Of a stretch of 23,635 bases of DNA, positions 1-23,635 are shown in pieces. Each line of letters starts with the position of its first letter. Position 1 is the first letter of the stretch. The DNA is from a virus. Under the pieces are notes generated by a model. It was not told the origin of the DNA. It searched no databases and was given only the letters and a program-made list of their open reading frames with translations. A program made the translations under genes and the position numbers. Location: the IMG/VR virus record IMGVR_UViG_3300021379_000174, positions 1-23,635 of that record. The stretch is one strand, 5' to 3'.

Positions 1-103
1 GTGCCACAATTAGGTTCACCCAGACGGTCAGGTTCACTGCCCAAAGCGGCGCAGTTATCGCAACGCTGCCGATTGCAACGTCTATGGCCGCTTTGTCCGA
101 CAT
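1..103 (-). CDS. start of a membrane protein, holin candidate, cut by the window edge
   Basis: The ATG at 103 follows the previous stop by one base (TAAGATG), and the frame is open to the window edge. The visible part reads MSDKAAIDVAIGSVAITAPL then WAVNLTVWVNLIVA, a short polar start and a long hydrophobic segment with tryptophans. This is typical of small phage holins. The ribosome site is weak, so translation is probably coupled to the previous gene. Confidence 0.6.
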   Translation of the reverse strand, partial: MSDKAAIDVAIGSVAITAPLWAVNLTVWVNLIVA

Positions 104-104
104 C

Positions 105-278
105 TTATTTGTTCTTCGCCCGGCCAATGTTCAACGCCAGCACATCCACAACTTTATAAATCGTGCCATATGCCTTCTGTGCCTTGCTGACAAGTTCGTC
201 ATCTTTCGGCGTTTTGGTTACTGCACTGACAGCAGCCGCAAAGCTGATGATGTAAGGCAGGTTTTCAAAGATTTCCAT
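105..278 (-). CDS. small hydrophobic protein, holin candidate
   Basis: The product has 57 residues. The ATG at 278 has GGAG six bases upstream; an in-frame ATG at 290 would add four residues and has AAGGA eight bases upstream. A short hydrophobic segment (LPYIISFAAAVSAVT) is followed by 'KTPKDDELVSKAQKAYGTIYKVVDVLALNIGRAKNK', an amphipathic helix. I associate this pattern with small membrane proteins in lysis regions of alphaproteobacterial phages. It may form the lysis hole or regulate it. The hydrophobic stretch is short for a full membrane span. Confidence 0.6.
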   Translation of the reverse strand: MEIFENLPYIISFAAAVSAVTKTPKDDELVSKAQKAYGTIYKVVDVLALNIGRAKNK

Positions 279-301
279 AATAATCTCCATAATGTTTTCC
301 T

Positions 302-505
302 TTATCTGTGATTGACCATATATTCGTCAAATCGTTGTTCGGCGCATCGGGTAAAGGCTGGCGTGTCTTGCTGGTGTCCAAACTTCTTGCAAAGTGTAAT
401 TGCCGTGCTGACTGCCTCTTGCTCCAATGCTTGTTTTCGTTTAACCAAATCAGCACATCCCATCAAGGTCGTTAATATGACAAAAAGGGTCACCGCTTTT
501 GGCAA
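302..505 (-). CDS. small lipoprotein, lysis-side
   Basis: The product has 67 residues and starts at a TTG preceded by TAGGAG. The first 17 residues form a lipoprotein signal: MPKAVTLFVILTTLMGC, with the lipobox L-M-G-C and Cys17 as the lipidated residue. The mature part is helical and ends '...CKKFGHQQDTPAFTRCAEQRF', with two cysteines (about 39 and 54) that could form a disulphide. It would sit in the cell envelope. An outer-membrane spanin or superinfection role is possible from its place beside holin candidates, but it lacks the proline-rich character of Rz1, so this is open. Confidence 0.65.
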   Translation of the reverse strand: MPKAVTLFVILTTLMGCADLVKRKQALEQEAVSTAITLCKKFGHQQDTPAFTRCAEQRFDEYMVNHR

Positions 506-509
506 GTTC

Positions 510-1184
510 CTATTCTCCTAGTAGTGCAGCCCTTCCCTTTGTCTGCACATATTGTTCCAATTCCTGCTTGTTGAGGCTTTTAACCCCAGCGCGAGCAGCC
601 GCACGTTGCCTCCGCTTTATCCTCATCTTGCCATAATCATCATAAACAATCCAGCGCGGAGCGTTTTTTTCGCCAAACGCTTTCATATATTCGTTGTGTT
701 TAAGATGGACGCTCTCGATGTCGCAACGCCCTTTTGGCTGACACTCACCGCAGAGGTTCTCGCAGACTTTGGGTCGGAAGCCCCAGCCACTTTGCCTAAA
801 CCAATGAAAAAACAGGCTGTAAGTCTTTGGAGCGGTTCTGCCTATATAGTGCGGCTCTGTCACATCGCGCCTCACGATACTTCCAGCCTTGCGCCAAATT
901 GCACCGTTTTCAGTATGCTCCATATACCCGCCAGACAGCAAGATAGTCAGGTTCGACCACGGGTGCGTATGGTAGTTGCCACCATCAGGGCTATGGTCAC
1001 TTTCTGGTATGTGGTGCAGCCACACATTTGGCAGCCACCGAGCCTTTGCACGGCCAGCGTCCACATCCGCTTCATCAGGCTCAACGCCAAATAAATAATA
1101 CCGCACAAAAAAAACATTGCCAAAAGCGTCCATTAACGCCTTGCACCTGCCAGTGCGTTCAAGCCACCTCAATAGCCAGTTCAT
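510..1184 (-). CDS. cupin-like HTHPW protein with four-cysteine insert
   Basis: The product has 224 residues. The core, about 50-135, looks like a cupin barrel: 'LHHIPESDH' then NYHTHPWSNLTILLSGGYMEH with His72 and His74, and 'VTEPHYI' with His112. This 'HxHPW....L.GGY' type is one I know from phages as a conserved protein of unknown function, and the histidines could bind a metal. After 'GWGFRP' come Cys141, Cys145, Cys148 and Cys154, a possible zinc site. The C-terminal 50 residues are basic and helical. Substrate and reaction are unknown. It overlaps both neighbours closely (TAATG upstream; its TAG is followed by the TTG start of the lipoprotein). Confidence 0.7.
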   Translation of the reverse strand: MNWLLRWLERTGRCKALMDAFGNVFFVRYYLFGVEPDEADVDAGRAKARWLPNVWLHHIPESDHSPDGGNYHTHPWSNLTILLSGGYMEHTENGAIWRKAGSIVRRDVTEPHYIGRTAPKTYSLFFHWFRQSGWGFRPKVCENLCGECQPKGRCDIESVHLKHNEYMKAFGEKNAPRWIVYDDYGKMRIKRRQRAAARAGVKSLNKQELEQYVQTKGRAALLGE

Positions 1185-1858
1185 TACTTGTAAACCTTTA
1201 TCACTGTGCAGCGACCTGTCGGTGTTACGTCAACCGATGCACTGCTAAGTTTTTTGACGCTATAAGCATCATAATCAGTGCCACCAATATTATAATCAGT
1301 GGAGAAAAACAGATAACAATCTGTGCCAGACTTGGCGATTGTTTCCTGTGAATTGATTGTCTTGTATTCAACAGTCCAGTCATCAACATCCACCAAACGC
1401 ATCACGCAAGCAATCTTCGCCCCACTGCTTCCTGAATTTATCCGGGCATTGCTGGAGAGAGGAACATATGCAAACGGATGAGAGACCCAATCTGTGTGAT
1501 TGTAGTCAGCATTTACAGTTGCGGTGATTGTGTTCTCTGCCCAATCTTCCGCAATCGTTATGTCGCTGCGGCTGACTAAAGATTTCCAGTTGTCTAAGTC
1601 TGATTTAACGTCAGCTATGTCTGAGGCTTCAATATCCCAAGTGATGCTGATTTCGCCATCAAACGGGAACAGGCTTGTGCCGCCCTTCATTATCCCACTA
1701 TAAGTATCGTGAACAACCCTAGCTTCAACATGATAAACGTCTTGCGCTGTGGTGCGTTGAAAATAATGGTCGGCTGACCATTCGTGAACAGTCACGCCAA
1801 TCTTGTTGTCAATATTAGCGCGATTTTCAACAATATTGGTCTCTTGGGCGATGGGCAT
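1184..1858 (-). CDS. beta-rich protein of unknown function, probably structural
   Basis: The product has 224 residues and starts at TAATG with the previous gene. It is mostly beta-strand, with many Thr, Ser, Asp and Tyr ('GVTVHEWSADHYFQ', 'ITWDIEASDIADVKSDLDNW', 'YNIGGTDYDAYSVKKLS') and no enzyme motif. It lies between the fibre block and the lysis-side genes. It might be an accessory tail or head decoration protein. I do not recognise it. Confidence 0.6.
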   Translation of the reverse strand: MPIAQETNIVENRANIDNKIGVTVHEWSADHYFQRTTAQDVYHVEARVVHDTYSGIMKGGTSLFPFDGEISITWDIEASDIADVKSDLDNWKSLVSRSDITIAEDWAENTITATVNADYNHTDWVSHPFAYVPLSSNARINSGSSGAKIACVMRLVDVDDWTVEYKTINSQETIAKSGTDCYLFFSTDYNIGGTDYDAYSVKKLSSASVDVTPTGRCTVIKVYK

Positions 1859-2220
1859 TAAAGTTCTTCCGCTTGTTCAGCGTCTAAGGCTGTTTGCTGT
1901 TCTCTTTCTTGTGATGCTTGGCTTTCGTAAAAATCATCACCATCAAACTCAAATTCTCTGCCGACAAAAGACCGCAATTCTGCTGCACGGCTATCATCGC
2001 CCTCATAATCTTCGGCAACTTTAGTGTCGTGGCAAAGGGTCGGCGCAGTTTTAGCAATTTGCAGCAAAATATCGTCTGCGCTAATATCCCCATAAGGAAC
2101 AACGTCAAACGCAAGCGATGGATAATCTTTAGCCTCACGCTTTGTTTCGTCAGACGAAAAGCTGACAAGCAGTTGATTGCTTTCCTCTAAATAACCAGAA
2201 ATGTAAATTTTGTATTTCAT
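1858..2220 (-). CDS. small acidic protein after the adhesin, unknown
   Basis: The product has 120 residues. I chose the ATG at 2220, with AGGTGA five to eight bases upstream and eight bases after the adhesin stop; an in-frame start at 2268 would lie inside the adhesin gene. It begins MKYKIYISGYLEESNQLLVS, has 'DDILLQIAKTAPTLCHDTKV', and ends in a Glu/Gln-rich helix. The size, acidity and place after a fibre gene fit a tail fibre assembly chaperone or a fibre-linked protein, but no family is recognised. Confidence 0.6.
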   Translation of the reverse strand: MKYKIYISGYLEESNQLLVSFSSDETKREAKDYPSLAFDVVPYGDISADDILLQIAKTAPTLCHDTKVAEDYEGDDSRAAELRSFVGREFEFDGDDFYESQASQEREQQTALDAEQAEEL

Positions 2221-2228
2221 GTCTTCAC

Positions 2229-3212
2229 CTATGATACGCCGCCAAGCCGCGTTCCTGTTGTTGACCAAGTAATGTTTGAATTGCCGACAGCGTAGTTGCC
2301 CGCCGCGCCGCCAGTGCCAACAGACCCAAAGGACGTGCGGAGAACCTGAGTTCCCACTCCCCCTGCGCCAGCAGAGCCTAACCCGCCACCCGCACCGCCA
2401 GCCGTGGTTAATGAATTCCCATTGGGGCTAATAACATCAAATCCTCCAGCGCCGCCTGTTGTTGCACCCCCAGTTGACCCATTTGCTGCACCAAAATTGG
2501 TGGAAGTAAATGAGCCAGCTTGAACATAATTCTTGGCTCTGCCGCCAGTGCCTCCTGCGCCACCATTTGTCCCAGCACCGCCGCCACCGCCGCCGCCGCC
2601 ACTGACATTAGAATTGTTTAACTTGCTGTCGTAAATTTTGCTGGCATTATTACCACCACCGCCACCGCCGCCGCCAGCAAACGTGCCGTTATTTGTTATT
2701 GTTGTGGCAAATTGTGAACGAAAAGCATTGCCCCCAGAAGAACCACCGGTTGCGGCTGCTTCCAAAGTAAAGTTATTAGAGCTATTGGTTCGAGCAGAAG
2801 CACCATCTCCACCACCGCCACCCTTACCAGCCACCGTGCCGTTATTGACAATAGTAATAGTGTCGCCGCTTGCCCAGCCCGTGCCAGTGTCAAGCGCGTA
2901 TGTGCCTGTGCTGGTTGAACCAACAGTCACACCACTGTTTATAGTAAGCGTGACGCTTGACTTGCCAGCAACATACGTGCCGCCCTTGTTGCTGAAGATA
3001 TTATAGTTGTTGGTGTTACTGCTAATCGTTAGGGCAATGGCAACTACGCTCGACGCGCCGTAATAATCAGAAAAAGATGCAGTCGCGCCATCAGCCGTGC
3101 CAAGCAAGGCGCGAACATCACTGCTGTTTAGGCTTATCTGCGTTCCAGCAGCGTTGCCTAACTCAGTGTTGAAATCGCTTAACGATATTTGACCTGAACC
3201 GGGAAGTGCCAT
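2229..3212 (-). CDS. glycine-rich tail adhesin, gp38-like
   Basis: The product has 327 residues. Residues 1-52 form a module common at the start of phage fibres ('MALPGSGQISLSDFNTELGN', '...SFSDYYGAS'). Residues about 55-120 are beta-stranded. From about 120 on come alternating glycine runs and variable loops: 'TIVNNGTVAGKGGGGGDG', 'TNNGTFAGGGGGGGGNN', 'VSGGGGGGGGAGTNGGAGG', 'TGGAGGFDV', 'AGGAGGGLGSAGAGG'. The 'NNGT.xGxGGGG' pattern is that of T-even gp38-type receptor-binding adhesins, whose glycine runs stack as polyglycine-II helices and whose loops contact the receptor. AGGAG lies before the ATG. It may be the main host-range determinant. Confidence 0.75.
   Translation of the reverse strand: MALPGSGQISLSDFNTELGNAAGTQISLNSSDVRALLGTADGATASFSDYYGASSVVAIALTISSNTNNYNIFSNKGGTYVAGKSSVTLTINSGVTVGSTSTGTYALDTGTGWASGDTITIVNNGTVAGKGGGGGDGASARTNSSNNFTLEAAATGGSSGGNAFRSQFATTITNNGTFAGGGGGGGGNNASKIYDSKLNNSNVSGGGGGGGGAGTNGGAGGTGGRAKNYVQAGSFTSTNFGAANGSTGGATTGGAGGFDVISPNGNSLTTAGGAGGGLGSAGAGGVGTQVLRTSFGSVGTGGAAGNYAVGNSNITWSTTGTRLGGVS
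2577..2677. repeat. GCC/ACC trinucleotide runs within the adhesin gene
   Basis: Two runs of CCG/CCA triplets on the plus strand, at about 2577-2602 and 2652-2677, encode the eight-residue glycine tracts. Such in-frame triplet runs can gain or lose units by slippage and so vary glycine-tract length without breaking the frame. Confidence 0.55.
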
Positions 3213-3221
3213 TGGTTACTC

Positions 3222-7769: not shown

Positions 7770-7771
7770 AA

Positions 7772-11326: not shown

Positions 11327-12604
11327 TTAGGCAGTAATGTCCGTAATGGCAGCAAACGACTGTGCGTGGCGCACAGCAACGTCTACTTCTTGCATTACAC
11401 GGATGCGAACCGCACCTGAAGAACCGCCAGTATACGGGTCAACAAGCACATCGCTCGTGCTGAACAAGCCAACCATCAACTGGCTAAAGTCACCAGCGAT
11501 AAGAGCAGACAGGCCAGTGCCTGTGCCTTTGGTCAGGTCAGACGGCACTTGGTTCGTTACAGCCATATTGTAGCCATAAAGCGAAGTCCACGGGTCATTC
11601 AGAATCATGACGCTATCAGTCGAAGACACTTTGGCGGTCTGTGCCAAGTGTGATTTGACTTTGCTGTTCGTCAGGAAGTTTACTTCACCGATTGCAGCAT
11701 TGTCTTGCTCAACTTCTTTGATAAGGTCAACAACCGAACCCCAAGTGGCGTTGCCGCCATTTGTGCCGATAGCAACTGAACCAATGCCAGTCGTTTCCAA
11801 GATGCCTGTCGGCTCGTTAGAACCAGCACCTTCAATGGCAACGTCTTCGATTTTCTGAGCAATAGCGTTCAGCAAGTCGTCACGAACGATTTGTTCGACA
11901 GACGGGTCAGACTGAATCATCAGCAGACGAGAAACGTCAGTGAAAGCACCCAGAGACTTCGGAGACATCGTGACTTGTGCAAAAGTTGCGTTGACTTCAG
12001 CAGTCGCGCCATTTTCAGCAACAAAGCCAGCAGATACGCCAGCAGACAGTTTCGGAATAGCAACGTCACCGCGCAGACCAGACATAAAGCGTGTGCCAAG
12101 CTGGTTCAGAACCAGACGGTTACGCAGAGCGTCAATGAATTGGTCGCCCAAGTGGTCGGTAGGCTTCAAGAAACCACCAGCACTGTCCGTGCCTACAGTC
12201 AGGTCACGTTTGCCAGTCCAGAAGCTATCAGGTGCGTAGAAGCCACGGGCTTCACGGCCTTGACGCTTGGCGATTTCGTCAGAAACTTCACGCTCCAGAC
12301 CATTCAGGCCAGAACCGTTTACCAAGCCACGAACAGCTTTCATAAAGCTATAGTCGCGGGTTTCTTTTTCATTCAATTCAACTGCGCCAGCAGCTTGCTC
12401 AAGCGGCTTGCCTTCGGGCAGTGCGTCCAACAGAACACCACGGAATTCGTTGATGCTCATGCCTTTGGCAATGGCTTCGTCTGCAAGGTCACGCTTGTTG
12501 TGTTTTACGGCAAGAGCAGTGATTTCTTGCGCGTTTTTGGTGAATTCGCGTTTGGCAGCTTCAGCAGCTTCCAAGCGAATTTCATCAGTGTTTACTTCAG
12601 TCAT
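11327..12604 (-). CDS. predicted separate major capsid protein from an internal start
   Basis: Inside the protease/capsid frame, Met339 (ATG at 12602-12604) is preceded by AAGAGGATATTAAA, so GAGG lies eight bases upstream. This is one of the better ribosome sites in the window and lies exactly at the boundary between the protease and the scaffold helix (MTEVNTDEIRLEAAEAAKREF). Starting here gives a 425-residue protein, the usual size of an HK97 major capsid precursor. Heads need several hundred capsid subunits per few protease copies, so an independent start makes sense. In-frame dual translation is inferred, not shown. Confidence 0.65.
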   Translation of the reverse strand: MTEVNTDEIRLEAAEAAKREFTKNAQEITALAVKHNKRDLADEAIAKGMSINEFRGVLLDALPEGKPLEQAAGAVELNEKETRDYSFMKAVRGLVNGSGLNGLEREVSDEIAKRQGREARGFYAPDSFWTGKRDLTVGTDSAGGFLKPTDHLGDQFIDALRNRLVLNQLGTRFMSGLRGDVAIPKLSAGVSAGFVAENGATAEVNATFAQVTMSPKSLGAFTDVSRLLMIQSDPSVEQIVRDDLLNAIAQKIEDVAIEGAGSNEPTGILETTGIGSVAIGTNGGNATWGSVVDLIKEVEQDNAAIGEVNFLTNSKVKSHLAQTAKVSSTDSVMILNDPWTSLYGYNMAVTNQVPSDLTKGTGTGLSALIAGDFSQLMVGLFSTSDVLVDPYTGGSSGAVRIRVMQEVDVAVRHAQSFAAITDITA

Positions 12605-13618
12605 TTTAATATCCTCTTTGACTTCTGTAGGTTCGACAAAATTAGCACTGCGCCCAATTCCAGCACCGACATTGTCTGCTGGCACGGCCACAATACTGGC
12701 TTCGTATGGAATCCACTGATTAACAACAACCGTCCCGTCATTGCTTCTCTGTTCCATATTTTTGATGACGTATCCGATACTCACGTTTCGAACCACACCA
12801 TCTTTGACATCCTCATATACTTCTCTTGCAAGTGGGTTCTTCCCGAACCGCACTACCGCACGCAGCTTTCTATCTGCCCGGTCAAGATAGGCTTCTTCGA
12901 CAATGCCAATCTGCTTAGTCATGTCGTGGTCTTTCAGCAAGGGTGCGTTACCACTTGCGATGCGCGACATGTCAATGGCTTCTTCGGTATGTTCCAAAAC
13001 TTCCATACCAAAATTTCTTTCAACGGGTTCTTCGCTTGACAGCGACATGCGAACCCTGCGGTCATCTTCGTCTGTTGCCTCTACCTCAACAGCGCGGAAT
13101 GTCAAAGTTGAACGGTCAAAGCGTTCTTCTTCTACAACTTCTTCGACCTGTTCTTCTTCATGCTCTTTGGCATAAACGATGGTCACAGTTTCGTCTGTTT
13201 CTTCAACATTGACGATATGACGTGTTTCAAGTTCTTCGCTCATAGCTTCCTCATCGGTTGCGTTAGTGTCAATGCTACGCTCATCGTCTTCTTTTTTCAA
13301 GATTTCCGTGATGCCCTTCGACCAAGTGAAGCCAGCATCACCACCCCACAATGCCCAAGCAATGCGACCATTGCTGGGATAACCATCTTCGCCGGGCGAA
13401 AAGCCTTCGCCCTGTTTGTCAACTTCATGCCGACTAAAGAACGAATACATCCGCTTGACAGTATCTTCAGACAGGTTCTTGCCGTTAACAATATCACGCG
13501 CACGCGCAATGCCAACTTCAGTGCCTCCGCGTCCGTGTTCGCGCCGCCAATCGAGACCGCGCTGCGCTTCTTCTTTCATGCCTTCTGTCGGCTTATAACT
13601 CGCCATCACTGCCCCCAT
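11327..13618 (-). CDS. prohead protease fused to HK97-type major capsid protein
   Basis: The single frame of 763 residues has four parts. Residues 7-100 are a domain beginning 'YKPTEGMKEEAQRGLDWR' and ending '...GRIAWALWGGDAG', known to me only from phage head genes. Residues 100-170 are a very acidic linker. Residues 170-325 are an HK97-type serine protease with His231 (LLKDHDM) and Ser280 (RNVSIGY). From 339 on come a helical delta/scaffold region and the HK97 capsid fold (TDSAGGFLKP, VDVAVRHAQSFAAI). The protease should cut the scaffold during head maturation. The ATG at 13618 or 13606 can start it; the second has a G-run five bases upstream. An internal start for the capsid part is listed separately. 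Confidence 0.9.
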   Translation of the reverse strand: MGAVMASYKPTEGMKEEAQRGLDWRREHGRGGTEVGIARARDIVNGKNLSEDTVKRMYSFFSRHEVDKQGEGFSPGEDGYPSNGRIAWALWGGDAGFTWSKGITEILKKEDDERSIDTNATDEEAMSEELETRHIVNVEETDETVTIVYAKEHEEEQVEEVVEEERFDRSTLTFRAVEVEATDEDDRRVRMSLSSEEPVERNFGMEVLEHTEEAIDMSRIASGNAPLLKDHDMTKQIGIVEEAYLDRADRKLRAVVRFGKNPLAREVYEDVKDGVVRNVSIGYVIKNMEQRSNDGTVVVNQWIPYEASIVAVPADNVGAGIGRSANFVEPTEVKEDIKMTEVNTDEIRLEAAEAAKREFTKNAQEITALAVKHNKRDLADEAIAKGMSINEFRGVLLDALPEGKPLEQAAGAVELNEKETRDYSFMKAVRGLVNGSGLNGLEREVSDEIAKRQGREARGFYAPDSFWTGKRDLTVGTDSAGGFLKPTDHLGDQFIDALRNRLVLNQLGTRFMSGLRGDVAIPKLSAGVSAGFVAENGATAEVNATFAQVTMSPKSLGAFTDVSRLLMIQSDPSVEQIVRDDLLNAIAQKIEDVAIEGAGSNEPTGILETTGIGSVAIGTNGGNATWGSVVDLIKEVEQDNAAIGEVNFLTNSKVKSHLAQTAKVSSTDSVMILNDPWTSLYGYNMAVTNQVPSDLTKGTGTGLSALIAGDFSQLMVGLFSTSDVLVDPYTGGSSGAVRIRVMQEVDVAVRHAQSFAAITDITA

Positions 13619-15074
13619 CTACACTTGGCGCGGCTGGCAGCTTAGTGCCAAACGGTTCAAAGGCAGTTTCAATATCGTAGCGGCTGGCAAGTTCTTTCTC
13701 GCGGCTGACAGCCTCAAACACTTCTTCGGTGTCCTTCCCGTATTGGCTATGAACGTCTTGCAGTGAGATGATGCCGTTATTGACCGCAGTGACAGCAGCA
13801 GTGATTTCTTTCTGCGGGTCAACCCAGCTAAAGCCACGCGGACGGTAAGTGACTTGGTCAGCAAACATATCATACTTGGTCATCGGCAGTGTTACCGCGC
13901 CAAACGTGATGGCTTGTTCCAGCCAATCGCGGTAAACAATGTCAACAAAACTTTCGACCATAAACTGTTGCAACATCTTAAAGTGGTCACGGTCTTCAAT
14001 CGTGCCTTGCCTGATGCTGCTGTAGCTAACGCCTTCAAGATTATTCGACAGCGACACATAGCTAACGCCAAGACCAGATGCGATGCCGCGCAGGATTGCT
14101 TTCTCAAAGTCACCAAATGCTGTGGTTGGGTGCTGCGGGTCAAAGCTGGTAAAGTTCATGCCTTCGGGCAGTTGTGAGAACGTGCCGGGTTCAGCTTCCA
14201 TAATCGGTGCTGCGCCATCATAGTCATCGCCAATAAATTCATCGCCAGACGGGCTGGTAAAGAAGCCCATCTTGCTTGCGCCAATGCGTGCAGCAACCAG
14301 TTCAGCTTCTTCGTAACCGTCAAGCATCTTCAGACGCGACAGCACATTTGACATCATAGGCACGCCACGGGTCTGGCCGGGGCGTTCTTGAATATAAGCG
14401 TGGATGATTTCCGAAGCTGGCACTTGAACGTGCTTTTTCTTCGTGCGTGAACCAAACGCTTGTTCGTGATACGGGTGGTCTTCAAACAAGAAATATGACT
14501 GCGGCTTGCCAGCGCGGTCAATCTCAACACCCATACGCACTTCGTTGCCGTTCTCTAAGCGCGTATTGTAATCTTCGTCAATATAATCGCTTTCAATGAA
14601 TTGCAGCGAAAAGCCAAATGCGTTATTGCGCTGGTTCTTAACTTTGCGAACAACAACTTCACCATCACGCGCCAGCGTTTCAATAAACAGGCGTTGTGCT
14701 TGCAGCCACGACAAGCGACCATCGACTGTGCAAGTGCCTTTGCGACCCCACGTTGCCCAAGCGGTTTCGACAACGCGGTTGCCCGGCGTGTCCAAGCTGC
14801 CATCGGTGTTGCGTTTACGCACTTGCAGCTTTACGCCAGTTGAACCAACAACATTGGTGGTCAGGATTTGCAGATAGCGGCGCGCATATGGATGGTTGCG
14901 GCTAATCTCACGGCAACGGTCACGCAAAACGCGCAGTGATGGTTTAATCTCACTGTCTGCGCTTCGGCTTGATGTTACGAAGTCTGCGAACAGCCGCCCT
15001 GTGTTCGCTCCGTGATAGGCACGCTTTTGCATACGTTTCTTCGGCTGGCGGCGCAAAAAGTCAAAAAGTGCCAT
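13593..15074 (-). CDS. portal protein, lambda family
   Basis: The product has 493 residues and forms the dodecameric ring through which DNA enters and leaves the head and to which the tail attaches. Recognisable lambda-portal features are the early 'VLRDRCREISRNHPYARRYLQILTTNVVG', the '...WATWGRKGTCTVDGRLSWLQAQRLFIETLARDGEVVVRK' core, 'SEIIHAYIQERPGQTRGVPMM' and 'GVSYVSLSNNLEGVSYSSIRQG' (residues about 340-365). Length and order match the family. Its ATG has GAGG eight bases upstream, inside the end of the connector gene. Its 3' end overlaps the protease/capsid gene by up to 26 bases. Confidence 0.93.
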   Translation of the reverse strand: MALFDFLRRQPKKRMQKRAYHGANTGRLFADFVTSSRSADSEIKPSLRVLRDRCREISRNHPYARRYLQILTTNVVGSTGVKLQVRKRNTDGSLDTPGNRVVETAWATWGRKGTCTVDGRLSWLQAQRLFIETLARDGEVVVRKVKNQRNNAFGFSLQFIESDYIDEDYNTRLENGNEVRMGVEIDRAGKPQSYFLFEDHPYHEQAFGSRTKKKHVQVPASEIIHAYIQERPGQTRGVPMMSNVLSRLKMLDGYEEAELVAARIGASKMGFFTSPSGDEFIGDDYDGAAPIMEAEPGTFSQLPEGMNFTSFDPQHPTTAFGDFEKAILRGIASGLGVSYVSLSNNLEGVSYSSIRQGTIEDRDHFKMLQQFMVESFVDIVYRDWLEQAITFGAVTLPMTKYDMFADQVTYRPRGFSWVDPQKEITAAVTAVNNGIISLQDVHSQYGKDTEEVFEAVSREKELASRYDIETAFEPFGTKLPAAPSVDGGSDGEL

Positions 15075-15788: not shown

Positions 15789-17645
15789 TTATCTCCACGA
15801 ATTAGCAAACCCCCCGCGCTTCGGCTGTCGGCGCAGTGGTCGCTGTTGCGGTTTAACTTCGTCTGCCACCTGTTCTGGCTCTTTGCGCGCGCGTTGACGT
15901 GCCGCCATAGCGTTGACATTCGTGTTGAGTATAGCAGAAGCCGCGATTGCATAAACCCTACAATCAAGTGCTTCGTTTCGTGGTCGCATCTTGCGCCATT
16001 CGCGTTTCTTGAAGCCTTTATGAAAGCGTGTCACGACTTGTTCGGCTGTTAGCATCTTAAAATACTCATCATCGCGGTCTGCGGGGAAATGGCAGTAGCC
16101 AGCCCCTTCTTCTTGAATACGCAGACGCGAATAGACAATCTCTTTGGCTGTATCAACGCCAATCGGGAATAGCTTGCACTTCATGTTGTTGTTCGTGCTA
16201 GGTCTGCCGACCAGTGGCTTGGCTTCGCCGCCTACACCCTTGATGGCAAAGATGCGCCGGCCATAGCGAGGCTTGGCGTATTTATAGACCTGCTGCGTAT
16301 GATGACCGCCTGTGTCAATCGCGGCGCATTGAATGGTCATCTTCATGCCATCTTCGCGTTCATACTCTGTAGCCAGCAGCGTATCTAAGTCAGCCCATAT
16401 CTGCGGCGCAGACGGGTCGCCGGGTATTTCGCGGTAATCCAGTGACCACGTTTCTTCGTCAAGGCCAATTCCGACCTGCTCAATAGCCAAACGGTCTGAT
16501 TGCACATCAATACCAGCAGTAATCATCACAACGCCTTCGGGTATCTTCTCGCCCCAGTCTTCGCGTCTGTCGGCAATCATAAAGTCTTCAATCTTCTCGC
16601 CCTGTTCTTCAAAAGTCTCGCCAAGATAGGTGTTGACCCAAACGCGCAAAGTCTCTGGCAGCTTCTTGGCTTCCAGAAAATCACGCACCGCATGTTCCAT
16701 AGGTGTCCACGGGCTATACAAGCCAGATAGTCGGAAACCCGCCTTGCCGACTGATGGGTTGGTGGCGACCCATCTTCCCCTGCGTATTGCACGAAAGCGT
16801 GCCGCATCATCCCATACCGAACCGCAATGTTCGCAGATATAAGATGCCGTTTCTGGCTTATCCTTATCCCACTTTACGTTGCTCCACCGAAGCACTTGTT
16901 CTTCACCGCAGTCGTTACACGGCACATGATATTCGCGTTTGTCTGTTTCTTCAAACGCTGCTTCGATGCGGCTGGCGTTTTTTACAGTCGGCGTGCTGAC
17001 CATCACAATCTTTCTGTTCCAGAATGTAGCAGCCCTGCGTTTCGCCAGTTCAATCGGGTCGCCTTCTGTGCCAGCACTAGGCGGGAAGCGGTCAACCTCA
17101 TCGCACAGCACAATACGGATAGGACGCGATGCCAGACTTGACGGGCTGTTCGCACCGCACATTGTAATATGACCGCCCGGAAACTGTTTCTTCAAAATGC
17201 TGTTGCCACTGTCTCGCGCACGCGGGTCTTTGATTTTGCCAGAAAGTGACGAACAGTCACGAACCATCGGCGCAAGTCGGTCTTTAGAGAAGGTCTGCGC
17301 CATTTCCAGTGTCGGCTGCACGACAAGCATCGGTGACGGGTCTTGTGCTACATGATAGCCAATCAGGTTTAGTATCATTTCAGTCTTGCCAACTTGCGCG
17401 CATGACATAATCACGACTTCTTCAATGCGCTCGTCACTGATAGCGTCCATTATGCCACGCTGATATTCGGCGCGGCTTGTTGACCACGCGCCATACTCTG
17501 CCGATGCTTCGCTGGATAACACGCGATATTGGTCAGCCCATTGGCTGACTGTCAAGTCAGGTGGCGGTTTGATTGCATCAAGCGTGCGTTCAACAACCGC
17601 CCTAGCTGCTGGCTTGTTTGGTATCAGTATTGGTATCAGCTTCAT
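15789..17645 (-). CDS. terminase large subunit, GpA family
   Basis: The product has 618 residues and packages DNA into the prohead by ATP hydrolysis and nuclease cutting. The ATPase has an adenine-binding region (WADQYRVLSSEASAEYGAW), Walker A-like SCAQVGKTE near 81-89 and Walker B IVLCDEVDRFP with Asp182/Glu183. A zinc ribbon follows with Cys243, Cys246, Cys271 and Cys274. The C-terminal nuclease includes AGIDVQSDRLAIE and AAIDTGGHHTQQV, as in the lambda GpA family. I chose the ATG at 17645, which has GGAG four bases upstream. An ATG at 17675 would add ten residues but lacks a ribosome site. The TGGAGATAA end doubles as the ribosome site of the next small gene. Confidence 0.95.
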   Translation of the reverse strand: MKLIPILIPNKPAARAVVERTLDAIKPPPDLTVSQWADQYRVLSSEASAEYGAWSTSRAEYQRGIMDAISDERIEEVVIMSCAQVGKTEMILNLIGYHVAQDPSPMLVVQPTLEMAQTFSKDRLAPMVRDCSSLSGKIKDPRARDSGNSILKKQFPGGHITMCGANSPSSLASRPIRIVLCDEVDRFPPSAGTEGDPIELAKRRAATFWNRKIVMVSTPTVKNASRIEAAFEETDKREYHVPCNDCGEEQVLRWSNVKWDKDKPETASYICEHCGSVWDDAARFRAIRRGRWVATNPSVGKAGFRLSGLYSPWTPMEHAVRDFLEAKKLPETLRVWVNTYLGETFEEQGEKIEDFMIADRREDWGEKIPEGVVMITAGIDVQSDRLAIEQVGIGLDEETWSLDYREIPGDPSAPQIWADLDTLLATEYEREDGMKMTIQCAAIDTGGHHTQQVYKYAKPRYGRRIFAIKGVGGEAKPLVGRPSTNNNMKCKLFPIGVDTAKEIVYSRLRIQEEGAGYCHFPADRDDEYFKMLTAEQVVTRFHKGFKKREWRKMRPRNEALDCRVYAIAASAILNTNVNAMAARQRARKEPEQVADEVKPQQRPLRRQPKRGGFANSWR

Positions 17646-18105
17646 ATGTCTCCACCACGCTATTCGCCAATTCATCTAAGGCAGCGTTGATATGTTGCTT
17701 CAGCAGCGTCTTCGCTTCGGTCAAGCTGTCTGCGCTGAACACATCTGGCGCGGCCTTTGCAGGAAGCGCAGTCATACGCGCCCTGAACACGCCAAAGATG
17801 TTTTCGTTTATCTCTGCCACCATTTCTACAGGCAACAGCAGACCGCGTTCTTTGGCAAGTTCCATCTCTGCCATCTCCGCTTCTGCCGCCACCTTACGCG
17901 CACGCGCTTCGTCCCAGCTTATTACGTCAGGCATACTCGCCCCGGCGAAGATGGCGCGCGCCGCATCTTCCATTTTGTAGTAGCTGGTCTTCTTATCTTT
18001 CCGCACTGGCGTTACGTCATTCATGCGTTTCGCCAGTGTGCGTCTGTCCATACCAAACTCAACCGATAAAGCGGAAATTGTCCAATCTTTCTGCATCATT
18101 GCCAT
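17602..18105 (-). CDS. terminase small subunit, Nu1-like
   Basis: The product has 167 residues. The N-terminus reads DWTISALSVEFGMDRRTLAKRMNDV, a winged helix-turn-helix like that of lambda Nu1 and related small terminases, expected to bind the packaging site. The middle is a long charged helix (DEARARKVAAEAEMAEMELAKERGLLLP), followed by 'EINENIFGVFRARMTALPAKAAP', which is typical of Nu1/DUF1441-type proteins. The C-terminal helix would bind the large subunit. Its end overlaps the large-subunit gene by 44 bases, and the candidate cos region lies just upstream. The ribosome site before the ATG at 18105 is weak (GAAAG). Confidence 0.85.
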   Translation of the reverse strand: MAMMQKDWTISALSVEFGMDRRTLAKRMNDVTPVRKDKKTSYYKMEDAARAIFAGASMPDVISWDEARARKVAAEAEMAEMELAKERGLLLPVEMVAEINENIFGVFRARMTALPAKAAPDVFSADSLTEAKTLLKQHINAALDELANSVVETYEADTNTDTKQASS

Positions 18106-18824: not shown

Positions 18825-19405
18825 AACGGTATCTCATCGTCAAAGTGTTCGTCGCCCTTGATGCTGATTATCTCTGCACCGGGGAACGCAGTCTTGGCAG
18901 CATGAACGTCCATCTGACTACGCCAAGCACGCACGATGCGTGCTATCTCTGTCACAGTATACACGGGCAGGTCGGTCTGCGCCAATGTCGCTGCACTGTT
19001 ATCTTTTGCGATAACTATTTGCATCTGTTGTTTACCGTCTTCATCAGGCGCAGTGGCATACCATAGTTCTGGCGGTGCTGGCTTATGACCAGCTTCTATA
19101 GCCTCAGTCTCTAGTGCTTTCCAGCCAGCCATCATGTTCTTAGCGCGCCGTATGACTAACGCCACATCTTTGTCAGCAATAGCGACATCCAGCTTGGCTT
19201 TAGCTGCCTCAAACTTAGCAGCAGTGTCAGGGCTGACCAGACCTTGCAAGCGTTCCTTGCCCCACCGCAGTTCGCAGTCAGACGCTACTTCATCAAGCGG
19301 CTTCAGCGCGCCGTGTATCTGGTCAAGCTGCCAGTCTTGCATCGGCGCATAATCTGGCTTGCCGATGGCATCTACATCATATCTGCTTTTGCGCTCTGTC
19401 ATCAC
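18821..19405 (-). CDS. unknown protein with SSB-like C-terminal tip
   Basis: This 194-residue protein has a mainly helical N-terminal two thirds (LDQIHGALKPLDEVASDCELRWGKERL, AAKFEAAKAKLDVAIADKDVALVIRRAKNM). A beta-rich segment follows (PELWYATAPDEDGKQQMQIVIAKD), then another helix. It ends with GDEHFDDEIPF. The last six residues closely match the DDDIPF tip by which bacterial SSB recruits partner proteins. No OB-fold signature or enzyme motif is seen, so I do not assign a function. It may be an SSB mimic, an SSB-pathway adaptor or an unusual ssDNA-binding protein. It starts four bases before the end of the nuclease gene and its stop overlaps the next start. Confidence 0.7.
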   Translation of the reverse strand: MMTERKSRYDVDAIGKPDYAPMQDWQLDQIHGALKPLDEVASDCELRWGKERLQGLVSPDTAAKFEAAKAKLDVAIADKDVALVIRRAKNMMAGWKALETEAIEAGHKPAPPELWYATAPDEDGKQQMQIVIAKDNSAATLAQTDLPVYTVTEIARIVRAWRSQMDVHAAKTAFPGAEIISIKGDEHFDDEIPF

Positions 19406-19818
19406 AGCCCCTTAAACTCATCCACCGCGAAGAAAGCATAAACGCCTGTGTCTTGCGGGTCGTTCCTGTCTGCCCTGCCACCAATAGCAAGGGTGCAATC
19501 CTTATTCATCGAAATATATGCCAATTCGTCCGTCCACTGCACGAACAAAAACGACTTCACGCCAAAGTGCTGATACACCTGCCGCGCATATAACACTTTG
19601 TCCATACCGCACATCGTTGTCGGATATTTAGCCTTCTCAAATGTGCGGCACTTTATTTCAAGAAAAAACTTGATGCCATTGTCACCCACAGCAGCATAAT
19701 CCATCGCATGACGCGGTGGTAGCTTCTGCAACATTACAGGTCGCGCAGCCACAATCTGTTCTGCCACTTTCTGTTCGTTTAGCTTATCTTCGCCAGTTTC
19801 GTATATCGGTCTATTCAT
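19402..19818 (-). CDS. small PD-(D/E)XK nuclease, VRR-NUC or resolvase-like
   Basis: The product has 138 residues. An N-terminal helix with Glu20 (NEQKVAEQIV) is followed by 'HAMDYAAVGDNGIKFFLEIKCR', in which Asp40 and Glu54-x-Lys56 form a classic PD-(D/E)XK metal-binding core. A helical segment and two more strands follow (SFLFVQWTDELAYISM). The size and layout suit a single-domain DNA nuclease such as a Holliday-junction or branched-DNA resolvase, or a VRR-NUC-like protein. The substrate is not readable from sequence. It lies after the repeat cluster and overlaps the next gene by four bases, so it belongs to the replication/recombination operon. Confidence 0.65.
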   Translation of the reverse strand: MNRPIYETGEDKLNEQKVAEQIVAARPVMLQKLPPRHAMDYAAVGDNGIKFFLEIKCRTFEKAKYPTTMCGMDKVLYARQVYQHFGVKSFLFVQWTDELAYISMNKDCTLAIGGRADRNDPQDTGVYAFFAVDEFKGL

Positions 19819-19839
19819 TGGTTTTCACATTCTTCATGT

Positions 19840-19917
19840 CATACCCCTTATAGGGGGGTATGAACATGTATGAATATACATGCCCATACCTTCATGCCAC
19901 CTTCATACCTTCATGCC
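19840..19917. repeat. direct-repeat and palindrome cluster, candidate origin or operator
   Basis: The 84-base gap after the primase-helicase gene is packed with symmetry. An exact 14-bp direct repeat, CATACCTTCATGCC, occurs at 19885-19898 and 19904-19917, a 19-bp period, with the second copy inside the last codons of the primase-helicase. Two palindromes sit beside it: CATACCCC/GGGGTATG at 19840-19847 and 19855-19862 (7-nt spacer), and CATGTAT/ATACATG at 19865-19871 and 19876-19882 (4-nt spacer). Iteron-like repeats beside a replication initiator fit an origin. Repeats in front of the next gene would also fit an operator. Which one applies cannot be read from the sequence. Confidence 0.5.
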
Positions 19918-21780
19918 TATGTTAAACAACCCATTGTTTTTGCTTAGTATTTGTTTTGAAACTAGGCGTGAAGTGAAGTCTGACCACCCACTGTCGGAGT
20001 AGCTTTTGCCATCTGCCGCAATAGCCCGGCGCAGAACGTCAGATTTGACCCCACGCGACCCATCATCGTCCGTTTCTACGAATGTCCCTGCGTTTAACAG
20101 TTCAGCTAATACGTCCACGCACTGCTGCTGCCCTTCGCTTAACTTAGCCTGTTTTGATGGCTTGCCCTCAATAACGTCTAGCACAAGGCTGCTTTGCTCA
20201 GACGCAAAACGGTCTTGCACAAATCGCACTTCACGCGCTTCCAGCCATATCGGTTCGGCTTCGGATACGTCTTTTTGCTTCTGCACCACAATTTCGACAT
20301 ATTCTGTCCCTGTCGTGCGTTTTATGGCAATAGATGTATCAACCGCACCCAGCAGCGCAGATGACCCACGCAAGCCCTTTTCAACGTCCTTGCCGCTATG
20401 GTGAACAGCCAGCACAGAGCAATCAAACCACTCTTTCAGCAGGTCGCATGACCTGATAAACATACCCATATCGGTTGCGCTGTTCTCATCTGCACCAGAC
20501 CCGGCAAATGACCGCGCCAATGTATCGACCACGATAAGGTCAGGCGATACACCACCCAGCGTTTCTTCTATTGCTTGCTTTAGCTGCATGACATCTGGTG
20601 CGTTCTCCATAGCCATACCAATCGGCGTAGTGACCGCGTAGAACGGCACATTCTCATCTGTTAGCTGATGGTCACGATGCCACGCTTCTGCACGCACAGC
20701 GATGCCTGACTGGCCTTCCATAGCCAAATAGACCACCGCACCCTGTCTGGTTGGTCTGCCGTTCCAGTCAACGCCGTGTGCCACTGACAATGCCCACGAA
20801 ATCGCCACAAAACTTTTATATGAAGCTGGAGCGCCAAACAGCACCGCGAAGCTATTTTCTATGATATAATCCGCGACCATAAACGATGGCGGTGGCGTTG
20901 CACGCAGTTCGCCTAGCGTTTTGACCCTGATTTTTCGTTCAGGAATTTCTGCAATACGCCCGGATACACTTGCTGGCGCATCTGCCTTTGCTGGCGCAAC
21001 ATCAATATCCGCAATCTTTCCTTCTCGCGCTCTGATAAGAGTGGCGGTGACTTTCCTTCTAAACTCATCTATTCCCCGTCCTTCAGCGTTTAAATCGCCA
21101 GTTCTGCTTTTTACTTTCGCTTCGTATGTCGGATATACGTTCTTTTCCATCCATTCAAGTGTCGGATAAGTGCCTGTGTCGCGCTTATAATCGGCAACAG
21201 CAGCCAGAACCACCCTAGCCATAAACTTCTCGCGGCCATCAACCACATTGCCCCAAGCATCAATATCAGAACCACCCATAGGACGCTCCAGAGCGTTAGC
21301 AGCCAATCCAACAGCTTGACTTGCCACCTTTTCTGGAAACGCTCCAAAGTCTTCGTCATTTAGCCACCTGTAGCCAGTGCTTTCAGGGTGGATAACATAG
21401 CCCCCATCTCCCCTGACATCCACGCAACCGTCAATACCAGCGCGATTTCGTATATCAGGAACGTGACGATAATAATAATGCCAGCCGCCCGATTGCGTTT
21501 CAGCGACCCTTGTAACTCCAAGCATTTCTGCATTTTTCTCCACCCATTCTTTGCCCTGCTTGCCATCACGCACATCAATGTCAATCACTGACACGCCGCT
21601 TGCTTCTCCCGTAGGTATGCCAATCAATGCTGCACCTGATATGGCAAACAGACGTTCTATTTCGTCAGGGTCTTGTGTAGCTGCTTTGAACCCGCCCTGA
21701 CAAACTGGCCGCTTCTTGCTATCGCACGGAAAGACAGGGTAGTCTTCTGCCACTTCCAGTGCTTTGCTTATAATATCCAT
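19903..21780 (-). CDS. primase-polymerase fused to RepA-like helicase
   Basis: This 625-residue protein is the central replication enzyme of the window and should make primers and unwind DNA. The N-terminal part (about 1-150) is a bifunctional primase/polymerase domain: VIDIDV with Asp67 and Asp69, SGGWHYYYR with His101, and VDVRGDGGYVI with Asp121. These match the DxD, sxH and D/E motifs of the PrimPol/AEP fold. The middle is an AAA ATPase of the RepA/AAA_25 kind, with Walker A FGAPASYKS near 310, Walker B LIVVDTLAR near 415, and AVHHSGKD...LRGSSALLGAVD near 457-480. The C-terminal 80 residues look like a winged helix. The start codon ATG follows GAGGGATTATA. No separate DNA polymerase is visible in the window, so this may start host-dependent replication. 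Confidence 0.92.
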   Translation of the reverse strand: MDIISKALEVAEDYPVFPCDSKKRPVCQGGFKAATQDPDEIERLFAISGAALIGIPTGEASGVSVIDIDVRDGKQGKEWVEKNAEMLGVTRVAETQSGGWHYYYRHVPDIRNRAGIDGCVDVRGDGGYVIHPESTGYRWLNDEDFGAFPEKVASQAVGLAANALERPMGGSDIDAWGNVVDGREKFMARVVLAAVADYKRDTGTYPTLEWMEKNVYPTYEAKVKSRTGDLNAEGRGIDEFRRKVTATLIRAREGKIADIDVAPAKADAPASVSGRIAEIPERKIRVKTLGELRATPPPSFMVADYIIENSFAVLFGAPASYKSFVAISWALSVAHGVDWNGRPTRQGAVVYLAMEGQSGIAVRAEAWHRDHQLTDENVPFYAVTTPIGMAMENAPDVMQLKQAIEETLGGVSPDLIVVDTLARSFAGSGADENSATDMGMFIRSCDLLKEWFDCSVLAVHHSGKDVEKGLRGSSALLGAVDTSIAIKRTTGTEYVEIVVQKQKDVSEAEPIWLEAREVRFVQDRFASEQSSLVLDVIEGKPSKQAKLSEGQQQCVDVLAELLNAGTFVETDDDGSRGVKSDVLRRAIAADGKSYSDSGWSDFTSRLVSKQILSKNNGLFNIGMKV

Positions 21781-21811: not shown

Positions 21812-21850
21812 GGGGCAGCGCAGTGAGGGAGTTAAAAACCGCGCCGCCCC
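21812..21850 (-). promoter_or_regulatory. intergenic hairpin B in the primase-helicase leader
   Basis: Bases 21812-21821 and 21841-21850 pair as a 10-bp stem with one G-U on the minus-strand RNA. They enclose a 19-nt loop that begins GGTTTTT, as in hairpin A at 23527-23565. It lies 13 nt after the stop of the SSB-like gene and 31 nt before the primase-helicase start. The loop also contains AACTCCCTCA, which can pair with the GGGAGTT and TGAGGG stretches around the ribosome site of the next gene. There is no terminator-like U-run. Confidence 0.6.
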
Positions 21851-21863
21851 GTCTTGTTACTGA

Positions 21864-22445: not shown

Positions 22446-22469
22446 AGTAATACTCCTTCTGTTCCACCA

Positions 22470-23234
22470 TTAAAGTCCGAAAATGCGTTTGCCTTCGGCA
22501 CGCATCACCGGGTCATTCCAGTAGAAACTGGAATAGCTTGGCGCAAAGATGGTCGCCAGTTCTTTCGCGTCATTAGACAGCGCAAGCAACTGCTTCATCC
22601 TCTTTGCTGCAATCTTAAAGTCTTCGACTAATTCCTTCGCCTCAACCGCGTTTATTTCGTAAATCGCGTGCTTTTTCGGCGTTACATAAGCAAACATGAT
22701 TTTGTGTTTTGGCCGCATTGCTTGATACAATGCACCCTGCCGCTTGTGGTTATCTGGCATTTCGGACGGGCAGCGCATCGTGGTCTTCAGGTCAATCGAC
22801 AGCTTCGGTGTCCCGTCAAACTCAAAATCGTCAAACCCTACAATCGGCACGCCAATGCCAATGTCCAGTTCCAACGCTGTCTGCGTAGCTATGGGCTTGC
22901 CAAAGCCACTAAACGCTTCGATGGCTTGCCGCACATAACCGTCCAGCACTTCAATTTGCTTTTCGCGGTCTTCTTTGTCCACGACCAGCGCAGTCTCTTT
23001 GTTAAATTCTTCTTTGGCTTTCTTAACCGCCTCATCTGGCGTAGCAATGCCAAACTCATCGGTCAAATACCATTCCAGCGCGTGTTCGACTGCGTTACCG
23101 CGTGCCATATTTGCATTTGTGCTGCCCCGCACACCTAGCGGATAGCGCAACAACCACGCTGCCGGGTCAGTGCGGAACATATCGACCGCACTGTAAGACA
23201 GCCTTGTAATTCTGTGTATATCCCAAACGCTCAT
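22470..23234 (-). CDS. PD-(D/E)XK exonuclease, RecB/Cas4-like
   Basis: This 254-residue protein probably degrades DNA ends in phage recombination or replication. Core motifs of the RecB/Cas4 nuclease family are visible: GNAVEHALE with His about 51, the GFDDFEFDGTP segment with Asp about 135, IDLKTT with Asp148 and Lys150 as the D-x-K active site, and a downstream KRQGALYQA helix with Gln166 and Tyr170 (the QxxxY motif). No cluster of four cysteines for an iron-sulphur centre is seen, unlike typical Cas4. I chose the ATG at 23234, which has GGAG six bases upstream and overlaps the previous stop. An upstream in-frame TTG at 23246 is less likely. The following gene is a probable ssDNA-binding protein, as in exonuclease/SSB recombination pairs. 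Confidence 0.85.
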   Translation of the reverse strand: MSVWDIHRITRLSYSAVDMFRTDPAAWLLRYPLGVRGSTNANMARGNAVEHALEWYLTDEFGIATPDEAVKKAKEEFNKETALVVDKEDREKQIEVLDGYVRQAIEAFSGFGKPIATQTALELDIGIGVPIVGFDDFEFDGTPKLSIDLKTTMRCPSEMPDNHKRQGALYQAMRPKHKIMFAYVTPKKHAIYEINAVEAKELVEDFKIAAKRMKQLLALSNDAKELATIFAPSYSSFYWNDPVMRAEGKRIFGL

Positions 23235-23503
23235 GCCGTTCTCCAAAAGCGTGTGCTTCCTTCAATTTCAAGAATAGACACTTTTTTGCCATATCTACCC
23301 GCATAAACGCGCACTCGATTTTTTGCTTTTCTTACCTCATGAGATGGCACAGTCGAAACTTTACCCTTAAACTCAGTCTCGCGTTCGTGCTTTATGGCAA
23401 AAGATTGCCCGACCTCAAGTTTGGCAAAGGTTTTTACAGCTTCACACTGCGTCTCAAAACCTCTCTTTTTTGGCAATTTAATGTTGTCTTCAATTTCATA
23501 CAT
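23231..23503 (-). CDS. small conserved phage protein, function unknown
   Basis: The product has 90 residues and is preceded by GGAG seven bases before the ATG. It has an acidic start (MYEIEDNIKLPKKRG), a 'LEVGQSFAIK' segment, and a basic C-terminal half (HEVRKAKNRVRVYAGRYGKK) ending in 'RFWRTA'. The layout 'VG-S-F ... basic helix with R/K-YGKK ... RxWR' resembles a family of small proteins often found next to phage replication genes, whose function I do not know. The basic helix followed by a short strand could bind nucleic acid, which is inference. Its stop overlaps the start of the exonuclease gene by four bases (ATGA), so the two are probably translationally coupled. Confidence 0.7.
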   Translation of the reverse strand: MYEIEDNIKLPKKRGFETQCEAVKTFAKLEVGQSFAIKHERETEFKGKVSTVPSHEVRKAKNRVRVYAGRYGKKVSILEIEGSTRFWRTA

Positions 23504-23526
23504 TATAAAACTCCACTCATATTAGG

Positions 23527-23565
23527 TGGCGGGTGGTCATCCTTCTCCAAAAACCCCACCCGCCA
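23527..23565 (-). promoter_or_regulatory. intergenic hairpin A, 10-bp stem with 19-nt loop
   Basis: Bases 23527-23536 and 23556-23565 form a perfect 10-bp GC-rich stem. On the minus-strand transcript the 19-nt loop begins GGTTTTT. It starts 3 nt after the stop of the upstream gene and ends 23 nt before the next start codon. No U-run follows the 3' arm, so it is not a standard intrinsic terminator. A second hairpin with the same stem length, loop length and loop start lies at 21812-21850. This suggests an RNA- or protein-recognised element, but its role is unknown. Confidence 0.6.
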
Positions 23566-23568
23566 TAG

Positions 23569-23635
23569 TTAATGTGCTTCGGCTCTCCAAATCGTTACCT
23601 TTGCACCTTCAAATTCATTCGTCCACATCAGCGTC
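23569..23635 (-). CDS. 3' end of an upstream gene, cut by the window edge
   Basis: On the minus strand an open frame enters from beyond the window and ends at a TAA at 23569-23571. The visible end reads TLMWTNEFEGAKVTIWRAEAH. It is too short to name. It lies on the same strand as everything else and stops 3 bases before a strong hairpin. The other minus-strand frame that could be continuous here stops within about 20 bases, so this is the most likely coding frame, but coding is not proven. Confidence 0.4.
   Translation of the reverse strand, partial: TLMWTNEFEGAKVTIWRAEAH

What the first reader, a model, noticed from the sequence alone, without database searches (positions are those of the whole stretch)
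1..23635. GATC appears to be absent and GANTC nearly absent from the whole window
Reading the full plus strand once, I found no GATC and only three GANTC sites. A random 23.6-kb sequence of balanced composition would carry roughly 90 of each. Both are palindromes, so one strand suffices. GANTC is the CcrM methylation site of alphaproteobacteria; GATC is the Dam site and a common restriction target. Strong avoidance of both suggests long adaptation to a host that cuts or regulates through them, and it is a clue to the host.
Basis: partly seen in the sequence, partly recalled or inferred. Interest (0 to 1): 0.72.

Follow-up and report, generated by a model that had tools for sequence, protein, structure and literature searches.

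The report
Marine phage purged of restriction sites
This window is part of a small marine virus of bacteria that has lost almost every copy of at least seven short DNA words that bacterial restriction enzymes cut, mostly by silent codon changes, and its relatives have purged different sets of words, so each lineage appears to record which DNA-cutting defences it has met.

Summary
GATC occurs 0 times (about 70 expected given the proteins and codon usage) and GANTC 3 times (about 44). GTAC, GGNCC, CCWGG, GGYRCC and GRCGYC are also at zero, while most other 4-base palindromes are only mildly reduced. The window is a fragment of a CRP-822-type marine siphophage, a family whose isolates infect pelagic roseobacters. 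The depletion acts on DNA in every codon frame: Asp before a C is GAC 82 times and GAT never. It is shared across the window's genus and changes between lineages. One clade has CATG at 0 but normal GATC; CRP-821 relatives lack CCGG; one relative nested in the GATC-free clade has regained GATC genome-wide. The three remaining GANTC sites all lie in the capsid gene, where the alternative Ile codons would create GATC or use the rarer codon ATA. Best explanation: long selection by Type II restriction enzymes, answered by site removal, with no methyltransferase found. CCWGG has a concrete enzyme (EcoRII-type, in 23 of 395 Rhodobacteraceae). GATC, GTAC and GANTC do not. CcrM alone does not explain GANTC loss. 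The phenomenon is known; its breadth and turnover here are what is notable.

The parts
1..23635 (.). Fragment of a CRP-822-type phage genome with no GATC, GTAC, GGNCC, CCWGG, GGYRCC or GRCGYC
   Evidence: Counts and synonymous-codon shuffles; per-frame protein-conditional test; a virus record of 23,635 bases
11602..11606 (.). Residual GANTC site 1 (GAATC); coding strand ATG ATT CTG (Met-Ile-Leu)
   Evidence: AAATC, TAATC or GGATT at this place in the aligned relatives
11914..11918 (.). Residual GANTC site 2; coding strand ATG ATT CAG (Met-Ile-Gln). Relatives hold GAATC here or, in G014 and L010, GGATC, which is the only GATC in each of those two records
12709..12713 (.). Residual GANTC site 3; coding strand TGG ATT CCA (Trp-Ile-Pro)
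11327..13618 (-). Major capsid gene (assigned by synteny with CRP-821); holds all three residual GANTC sites and uses no ATA codon (0 of 40 Ile, against 80 of 343 elsewhere)
13593..15074 (-). Portal gene (by synteny)
15789..17675 (-). Terminase large subunit, used for the family tree; 62-64% identical to CRP-821, CRP-811 and CRP-406
19402..19818 (-). Phage PDDEXK_14 endonuclease (candidate self-cutter, a rival explanation)
   Evidence: Pfam PF24579, E 4e-33; no homologue found in G020-G022
19903..21780 (-). Prim-Pol/AAA replication protein. In G020-G022 a C5 methyltransferase lies directly upstream of the homologue; in the window that place is only about 85 bp wide
22470..23246 (-). PD-(D/E)XK nuclease (exonuclease-like recombination gene)

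Best explanation
The window comes from a presumably lytic phage of a marine alphaproteobacterium, probably a pelagic roseobacter or a neighbour. Its lineage has been exposed for a long time to several orthodox Type II restriction enzymes with the specificities GATC, GTAC, GGNCC, CCWGG, GGYRCC, GRCGYC and GANTC. A genome survives entry only if it lacks the unprotected sites, so any mutation that creates a site is removed, and existing sites have been replaced mostly by synonymous codons. No methyltransferase was found that would protect the sites instead. Shown: the depletion, its action at the DNA level, its spread over the genus and its turnover between lineages. Inferred: that restriction is the selective agent. 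Supported by a concrete host-group enzyme only for CCWGG.
For: The avoided words are mostly palindromic Type II-like sites, and they are absent in all three codon frames: GATC 0/38.9, 0/3.5, 0/27.4; GTAC 0/14.5, 0/27.5, 0/11.3. Codon choice bends only where a site would form: Asp before C is GAC 82, GAT 0 (elsewhere 204:234); Ile ATC 0 of 81 after a codon ending in G (elsewhere 117 of 302); Tyr TAC 0 of 23 after G. Pooled over the window's genus: GATC 2/407, GTAC 2/269. Related lineages avoid different sets: CATG 0/187 with normal GATC in one clade; CCGG 4/220 in CRP-821/811/831; GCWGC 0/59 in G007/L011. On the TerL tree CATG avoidance needs 1 change of state and GATC avoidance 3. G005, nested in the GATC-free clade, has GATC 32/58 spread evenly, mostly one transition from refuge sequences (GGTC in 12 of 19 aligned sites). 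The residual sites sit where avoidance rules and codon choice conflict. C5 MTase + Vsr + EcoRII loci (CCWGG) were confirmed in three Rhodobacteraceae genomes, and EcoRII-C occurs in 23/395; CCWGG is also missing from the unrelated roseophages SIO1, DSS3phi2 and CRP-1. No C5 or D12 methyltransferase was found in the window, G001 or G014.
Against: No GATC-cutting enzyme of the DpnII or MutH/Sau3AI families was found in 395 Rhodobacteraceae genomes, and no Eco47II either, though in that search nothing rang in the controls. No library model for GTAC- or GANTC-cutting enzymes was at hand. The host of this phage is not known. Some avoided words are not palindromes (CATGG here, CGAG in CRP-406), which orthodox Type II systems do not readily explain. 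Beyond the two MTase families searched, other methyltransferase families were not tested.
Confidence: 0.85

Rival explanations
1. GANTC is avoided because host CcrM methylation (with GcrA) would disturb phage transcription or replication, not because GANTC is cut.
For: CcrM-type genes were found in many Rhodobacteraceae and other alphaproteobacteria and CcrM usually has no restriction partner; GANTC depletion in about half of pelagiphages is reported where hosts lack known R-M systems (PMC9516812); Rhodobacteraceae and Caulobacterales chromosomal stretches are themselves low in GANTC (165/380 and 228/626).
Against: Roseophage DSS3phi2 keeps GANTC at 131/167, and SIO1 and CRP-1 are only partly depleted, although roseobacters carry CcrM. 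Loss is nearly complete inside coding regions too, in all frames, whereas a regulatory effect should weigh most on promoters. It cannot explain GATC, GTAC, GGNCC or CCWGG.
Confidence: 0.2
2. The phage encodes its own sequence-specific nuclease (for example PDDEXK_14) that degrades host DNA, and it must lack the sites itself.
For: A PDDEXK_14 gene lies at 19402-19818; CRP-811, CRP-831 and CRP-406 have a gene annotated as putative PDDEXK endonuclease.
Against: G020-G022 avoid GATC and GTAC at 0 but have no detectable homologue. One small nuclease cannot account for seven unrelated words. The avoided set differs between lineages.
Confidence: 0.04
3. Compositional or mutational bias, host codon adaptation, or general palindrome avoidance.
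For: Several palindromes are mildly under-represented (GGCC 0.31-0.36, CATG 0.36-0.57).
Against: Zero counts persist after conditioning on protein and codon usage; GCGC, CGCG and ATAT are not depleted or only slightly; close relatives of like composition differ sharply; Rhodobacteraceae chromosomes are rich in GATC.
Confidence: 0.02
4. A sequencing or library artefact, such as DNA digested before assembly.
For: The close relatives are metagenomic contigs.
Against: Contigs from one sample show both patterns (L010 against L011 and L027, prefix 3300017782); several separate metagenomes agree; isolates CRP-821/811/831 show the same kind of purge for other words.
Confidence: 0.01

Closest known systems
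Restriction-site avoidance in prokaryotic viruses (Rusinov et al. 2018, PMC6286503)
   Same: Near-complete loss of orthodox Type II sites in a dsDNA, probably non-temperate phage; that survey reports complete or almost complete elimination in about one tenth of viral genomes.
   Different: Here at least seven sites are gone together in one fragment, lineage-specific sets turn over within one phage family, and the host enzymes are mostly unknown.
GANTC depletion in pelagiphages (Seong et al. 2022, PMC9516812)
   Same: Marine alphaproteobacterial phages split by clade into GANTC-poor and GANTC-normal groups.
   Different: Another phage family (CRP-822-type), and GANTC is one of several words lost; GATC and GTAC losses are not in the passages of that report that I read.
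CRP-822-type phage family (Wu et al. 2025, PMC12629253)
   Same: Same gene order from terminase through tail; TerL 62-64% identical to isolates CRP-821, CRP-811, CRP-406.
   Different: The window's genus has no C5 methyltransferase detected, a shorter genome (G001 spans nearly the whole circle in 24.9 kb), and avoids GATC, which the four isolates examined do not. The paper's text does not mention restriction or these motifs.
Puniceispirillum phage HMO-2011
   Same: GATC 0/71 and CCWGG 0/34 in 25 kb.
   Different: An unrelated phage; GTAC 83/110 is not avoided and GANTC is only halved.

Membership tests
Restriction-site avoidance (Type II) | Site count far below a codon- and composition-aware expectation | tested here: met
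   GATC 0/69.8, GTAC 0/53.3, GGNCC 0/38.0, CCWGG 0/34.2, GANTC 3/43.7
Restriction-site avoidance (Type II) | Specific to certain sites, not all palindromes | tested here: met
   Other 4-base palindromes 0.31-0.99 of Markov expectation; GCGC and CGCG not depleted against codon shuffles
Restriction-site avoidance (Type II) | Cognate restriction enzymes occur in the host group | tested here: inconclusive
   CCWGG: yes, EcoRII-C in 23/395 Rhodobacteraceae, with C5 MTase and Vsr in three loci examined. GATC: 0/395 Rhodobacteraceae, 6/172 Alphaproteobacteria by PF04556. GTAC, GANTC: no model
Restriction-site avoidance (Type II) | Restriction in fact lowers infection by site-bearing DNA | not testable with these tools
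   Needs host cultures
CRP-822-type phages | TerL and structural gene order of the family | tested here: met
   TerL 61.7-64.1% identical, same order TerS-TerL-portal-capsid-tail
CRP-822-type phages | Placement by five core genes in one of the subgroups I-V | not tested
   Only a TerL tree was built
CcrM-driven GANTC avoidance | All phages of CcrM-bearing hosts avoid GANTC | tested here: not met
   DSS3phi2 131/167, SIO1 28/104, CRP-1 32/80; that these particular hosts carry CcrM rests on general knowledge of roseobacters and

The most novel reading that the evidence does not exclude
Some of the purged words are read by defence systems that are not orthodox Type II R-M and are not yet described in these marine hosts: a system that uses CcrM's GANTC mark as its self-label, or systems that target the non-palindromic words CATGG (window genus) and CGAG (CRP-406). 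The phage family's avoidance sets would then be a map for finding them.
Probability: 0.15. Interest if true: 0.8.

Novelty: new member of a known kind. Interest (0 to 1): 0.45.

Why it matters
Many marine bacteria are uncultured, and hosts of most marine phages are unknown. A phage family in which each lineage lacks a different, cleanly defined set of words gives a readable record of which enzymes its hosts carry, and so a test for host assignment. It also shows loss of avoidance (G005) and conflicts between avoidance rules and codon choice at single sites, which lets one rank the strength of selection against each word.

Tried and rejected
Whole-window DNA match to deposited phages: none. Host restriction enzymes for GATC through DpnII and MutH/Sau3AI families: none in 395 Rhodobacteraceae. 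The six DpnII matches in 172 Alphaproteobacteria lie in genomes of 0.7-2.3 Mb; the three strong ones are in AT-rich DNA (30-40% GC at the locus), which does not match this phage's 50%. Eco47II search uninformative, nothing rang in the controls. The C5 methyltransferase of G020 gave no host link among plasmids or phages. My first scan for methyltransferases by short sequence motifs proved unreliable, since the same kind of scan missed the roseobacter C5 enzymes; I replaced it by profile searches. Phage-encoded nuclease and library artefact were considered and rejected (see rivals). Conserved function of the residual GANTC sites was considered: two of three recur in the nearest relatives, but the codon conflict explains them.

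Full report
What was claimed and what is there. A computed count gives exactly that: GATC 0, GANTC 3, all GAATC at 11602, 11914 and 12709. Four expectations agree that this is not chance: base composition 90.7 for GATC; second-order Markov 75.2; 200 synonymous-codon shuffles 69.7, minimum 50; protein- and codon-usage-conditional 69.8. For GANTC the last two are 42.5 and 43.7. Other 4-base palindromes are at 0.31-0.99 of Markov expectation, so this is not general palindrome avoidance.

What the window is. It is a virus record of 23,635 bases, 93% coding, with large genes on the minus strand. Its TerL is 62-64% identical to Roseobacter phages CRP-821, CRP-811, CRP-831 and CRP-406, and the order TerS-TerL-portal-capsid-tail is the same. 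These isolates define the CRP-822-type family, siphoviruses of pelagic roseobacters, described as almost all lacking integrase. The nearest relative, G001, is 93-96% identical in DNA over the head and replication parts but only 64-70% in the tail part, and it bridges the two ends of the window, so about 3.1 kb are missing from the window. That stretch of G001 holds only open frames under about 180 residues, too short for a methyltransferase. Profile searches find no C5 or D12 methyltransferase in the window, G001 or G014; G020-G022 and CRP-821 have a C5 enzyme.

How the sites are avoided. Conditional on the encoded proteins, GATC and GTAC are at zero in each of the three codon frames. Asp before a C-starting codon is GAC 82 times and GAT never, against 204:234 elsewhere. 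Ile is ATC 0 of 81 times after a codon ending in G, against 117 of 302. Tyr is TAC 0 of 23 times after G, against 58 of 187. The constraint thus acts on DNA, and proteins are kept by silent changes. Refuge sequences one step away, GACC/GGTC among them, are in excess (217 against 140).

The three exceptions. All three GANTC sites lie in the capsid gene in the contexts Met-Ile-Leu, Met-Ile-Gln and Trp-Ile-Pro, where the base before Ile is a fixed G and the next codon starts with C. There ATC makes GATC, ATT makes GANTC, and only ATA avoids both. In the other genes all nine such contexts use ATA. The capsid gene uses no ATA at all (0 of 40 Ile codons, against 80 of 343 elsewhere; Fisher P = 1e-4), as expected of a highly expressed gene that shuns a rarer codon (inference). 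At the second site, relatives G014 and L010 carry GGATC instead, and that is the only GATC in each of those records. The exceptions therefore look like conflicts between rules, with GATC usually the stricter one.

Turnover between relatives. Pooled over the window's genus, GATC is 2/407 and GTAC 2/269. G020-G022 and G023 also lack GATC and GTAC. A clade around L015-L024 has CATG at 0/187 and normal or raised GATC. CRP-821/811/831 lack CCGG (4/220) and GTAC. G007/L011 lack GCWGC (0/59). CRP-406 lacks the non-palindrome CGAG (1/89). GANTC and CCWGG are low in nearly all members of about 50% GC, but GANTC is not low in the low-GC members G012/G013 (111/115, 62/62). On a TerL tree of 40 rows (quick method, some open forks) CATG avoidance needs one change, GATC three, GTAC five. 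G005 sits inside the GATC-free clade by TerL but has GATC 32/58, evenly spread; 12 of 19 of these sites that align to G014 are GGTC there, one transition away. This looks like relaxed selection after a change of host (inference). Contigs of one metagenome show both states, which rules out a simple library artefact.

Who cuts. In a sample of 395 Rhodobacteraceae genomes, 23 have an EcoRII C-terminal domain. In three loci examined it is encoded next to a C5 methyltransferase and a Vsr gene, and one of them matches solved EcoRII by sequence: what looks like a complete CCWGG system. CCWGG is also missing from the unrelated roseophages SIO1 (1/47), DSS3phi2 (0/47) and CRP-1 (0/31), and from HMO-2011 (0/34), but not from RDJL1 (142/74) or the cyanophage S-CBS1 (97/68). 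For GATC no enzyme of the two known families searched was found in Rhodobacteraceae, though DpnII-type genes exist in 6 of 172 sampled Alphaproteobacteria. For GTAC and GANTC no model was at hand. The host of the window may not be a roseobacter: HMO-2011, whose host is in SAR116, also has GATC at 0/71. I do not assign a host.

GANTC and CcrM. GANTC depletion in about half of the pelagiphages examined is on record, unexplained (PMC9516812). Here DSS3phi2 keeps GANTC (131/167) and RDJL1 has none (0/142), so CcrM in the host is not sufficient. A GANTC-cutting enzyme in some hosts is the simpler reading, unproven.

Verdict. This is restriction-site avoidance, a known phenomenon (PMC6286503), in an extreme and well-resolved form. 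The restriction cause is inferred from the nature of the words, the codon evidence, the turnover and, for one word, a matching host-group enzyme. The CRP-822 paper's text does not mention it.

Noticed in passing
window 1-23635: CATGG/CCATG, a non-palindromic 5-mer, is absent (0 of 32 expected; 0 of 75 with G001), while CATG itself occurs 37 times; no orthodox Type II site fits this directly.
   Followed up: partly
L056 (CRP-406): The non-palindromic word CGAG/CTCG is nearly absent (1 of 89 expected) in a cultured roseophage.
   Followed up: no
L011, L078 (G007): GCAGC/GCTGC (GCWGC) absent, 0 of 59 expected, together with CGWCG near zero.
   Followed up: no
L015-L024, L079, L080: A clade of related contigs with CATG completely absent (0 of 187) although GATC is above expectation.
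   Followed up: partly
L077 (G005, IMGVR_UViG_3300017749_000296): A close relative that has regained GATC, GTAC and GGNCC genome-wide while still lacking GGYRCC (0/12).
   Followed up: yes
L204 (HMO-2011, 1-25000): The SAR116 phage lacks GATC (0/71), CCWGG (0/34), CGWCG (0/12) and RAGCTY (0/27).
   Followed up: no
L211 4363-7339; L213 3889-6843; L215 3667-6586: C5 methyltransferase, Vsr and EcoRII-type nuclease encoded side by side in Rhodobacteraceae genomes; EcoRII-C in 23 of 395 sampled.
   Followed up: yes
L055 7501-8983 (CRP-821): A C5 methyltransferase gene adjoins a 138-aa hypothetical gene; sister phages CRP-811 and CRP-831 have a putative PDDEXK endonuclease and no C5 methyltransferase in this region.
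   Followed up: partly
window 101-8060 against L075/L076 (G001): Mosaic genome: the tail module is only 64-70% identical to G001 while the rest is 93-96%, yet both versions lack the same words.
   Followed up: partly
G020:C1:17086-18896 and G023:C1:8060-9919: The TerL match runs across an in-frame TGA in these two related contigs; a split gene, an error or a start-site effect was not resolved.
   Followed up: no
window 510-1184: Minus-strand gene near the tail module with a match to a phage family annotated as cysteine dioxygenase (phrog_4786, E 4e-17).
   Followed up: no
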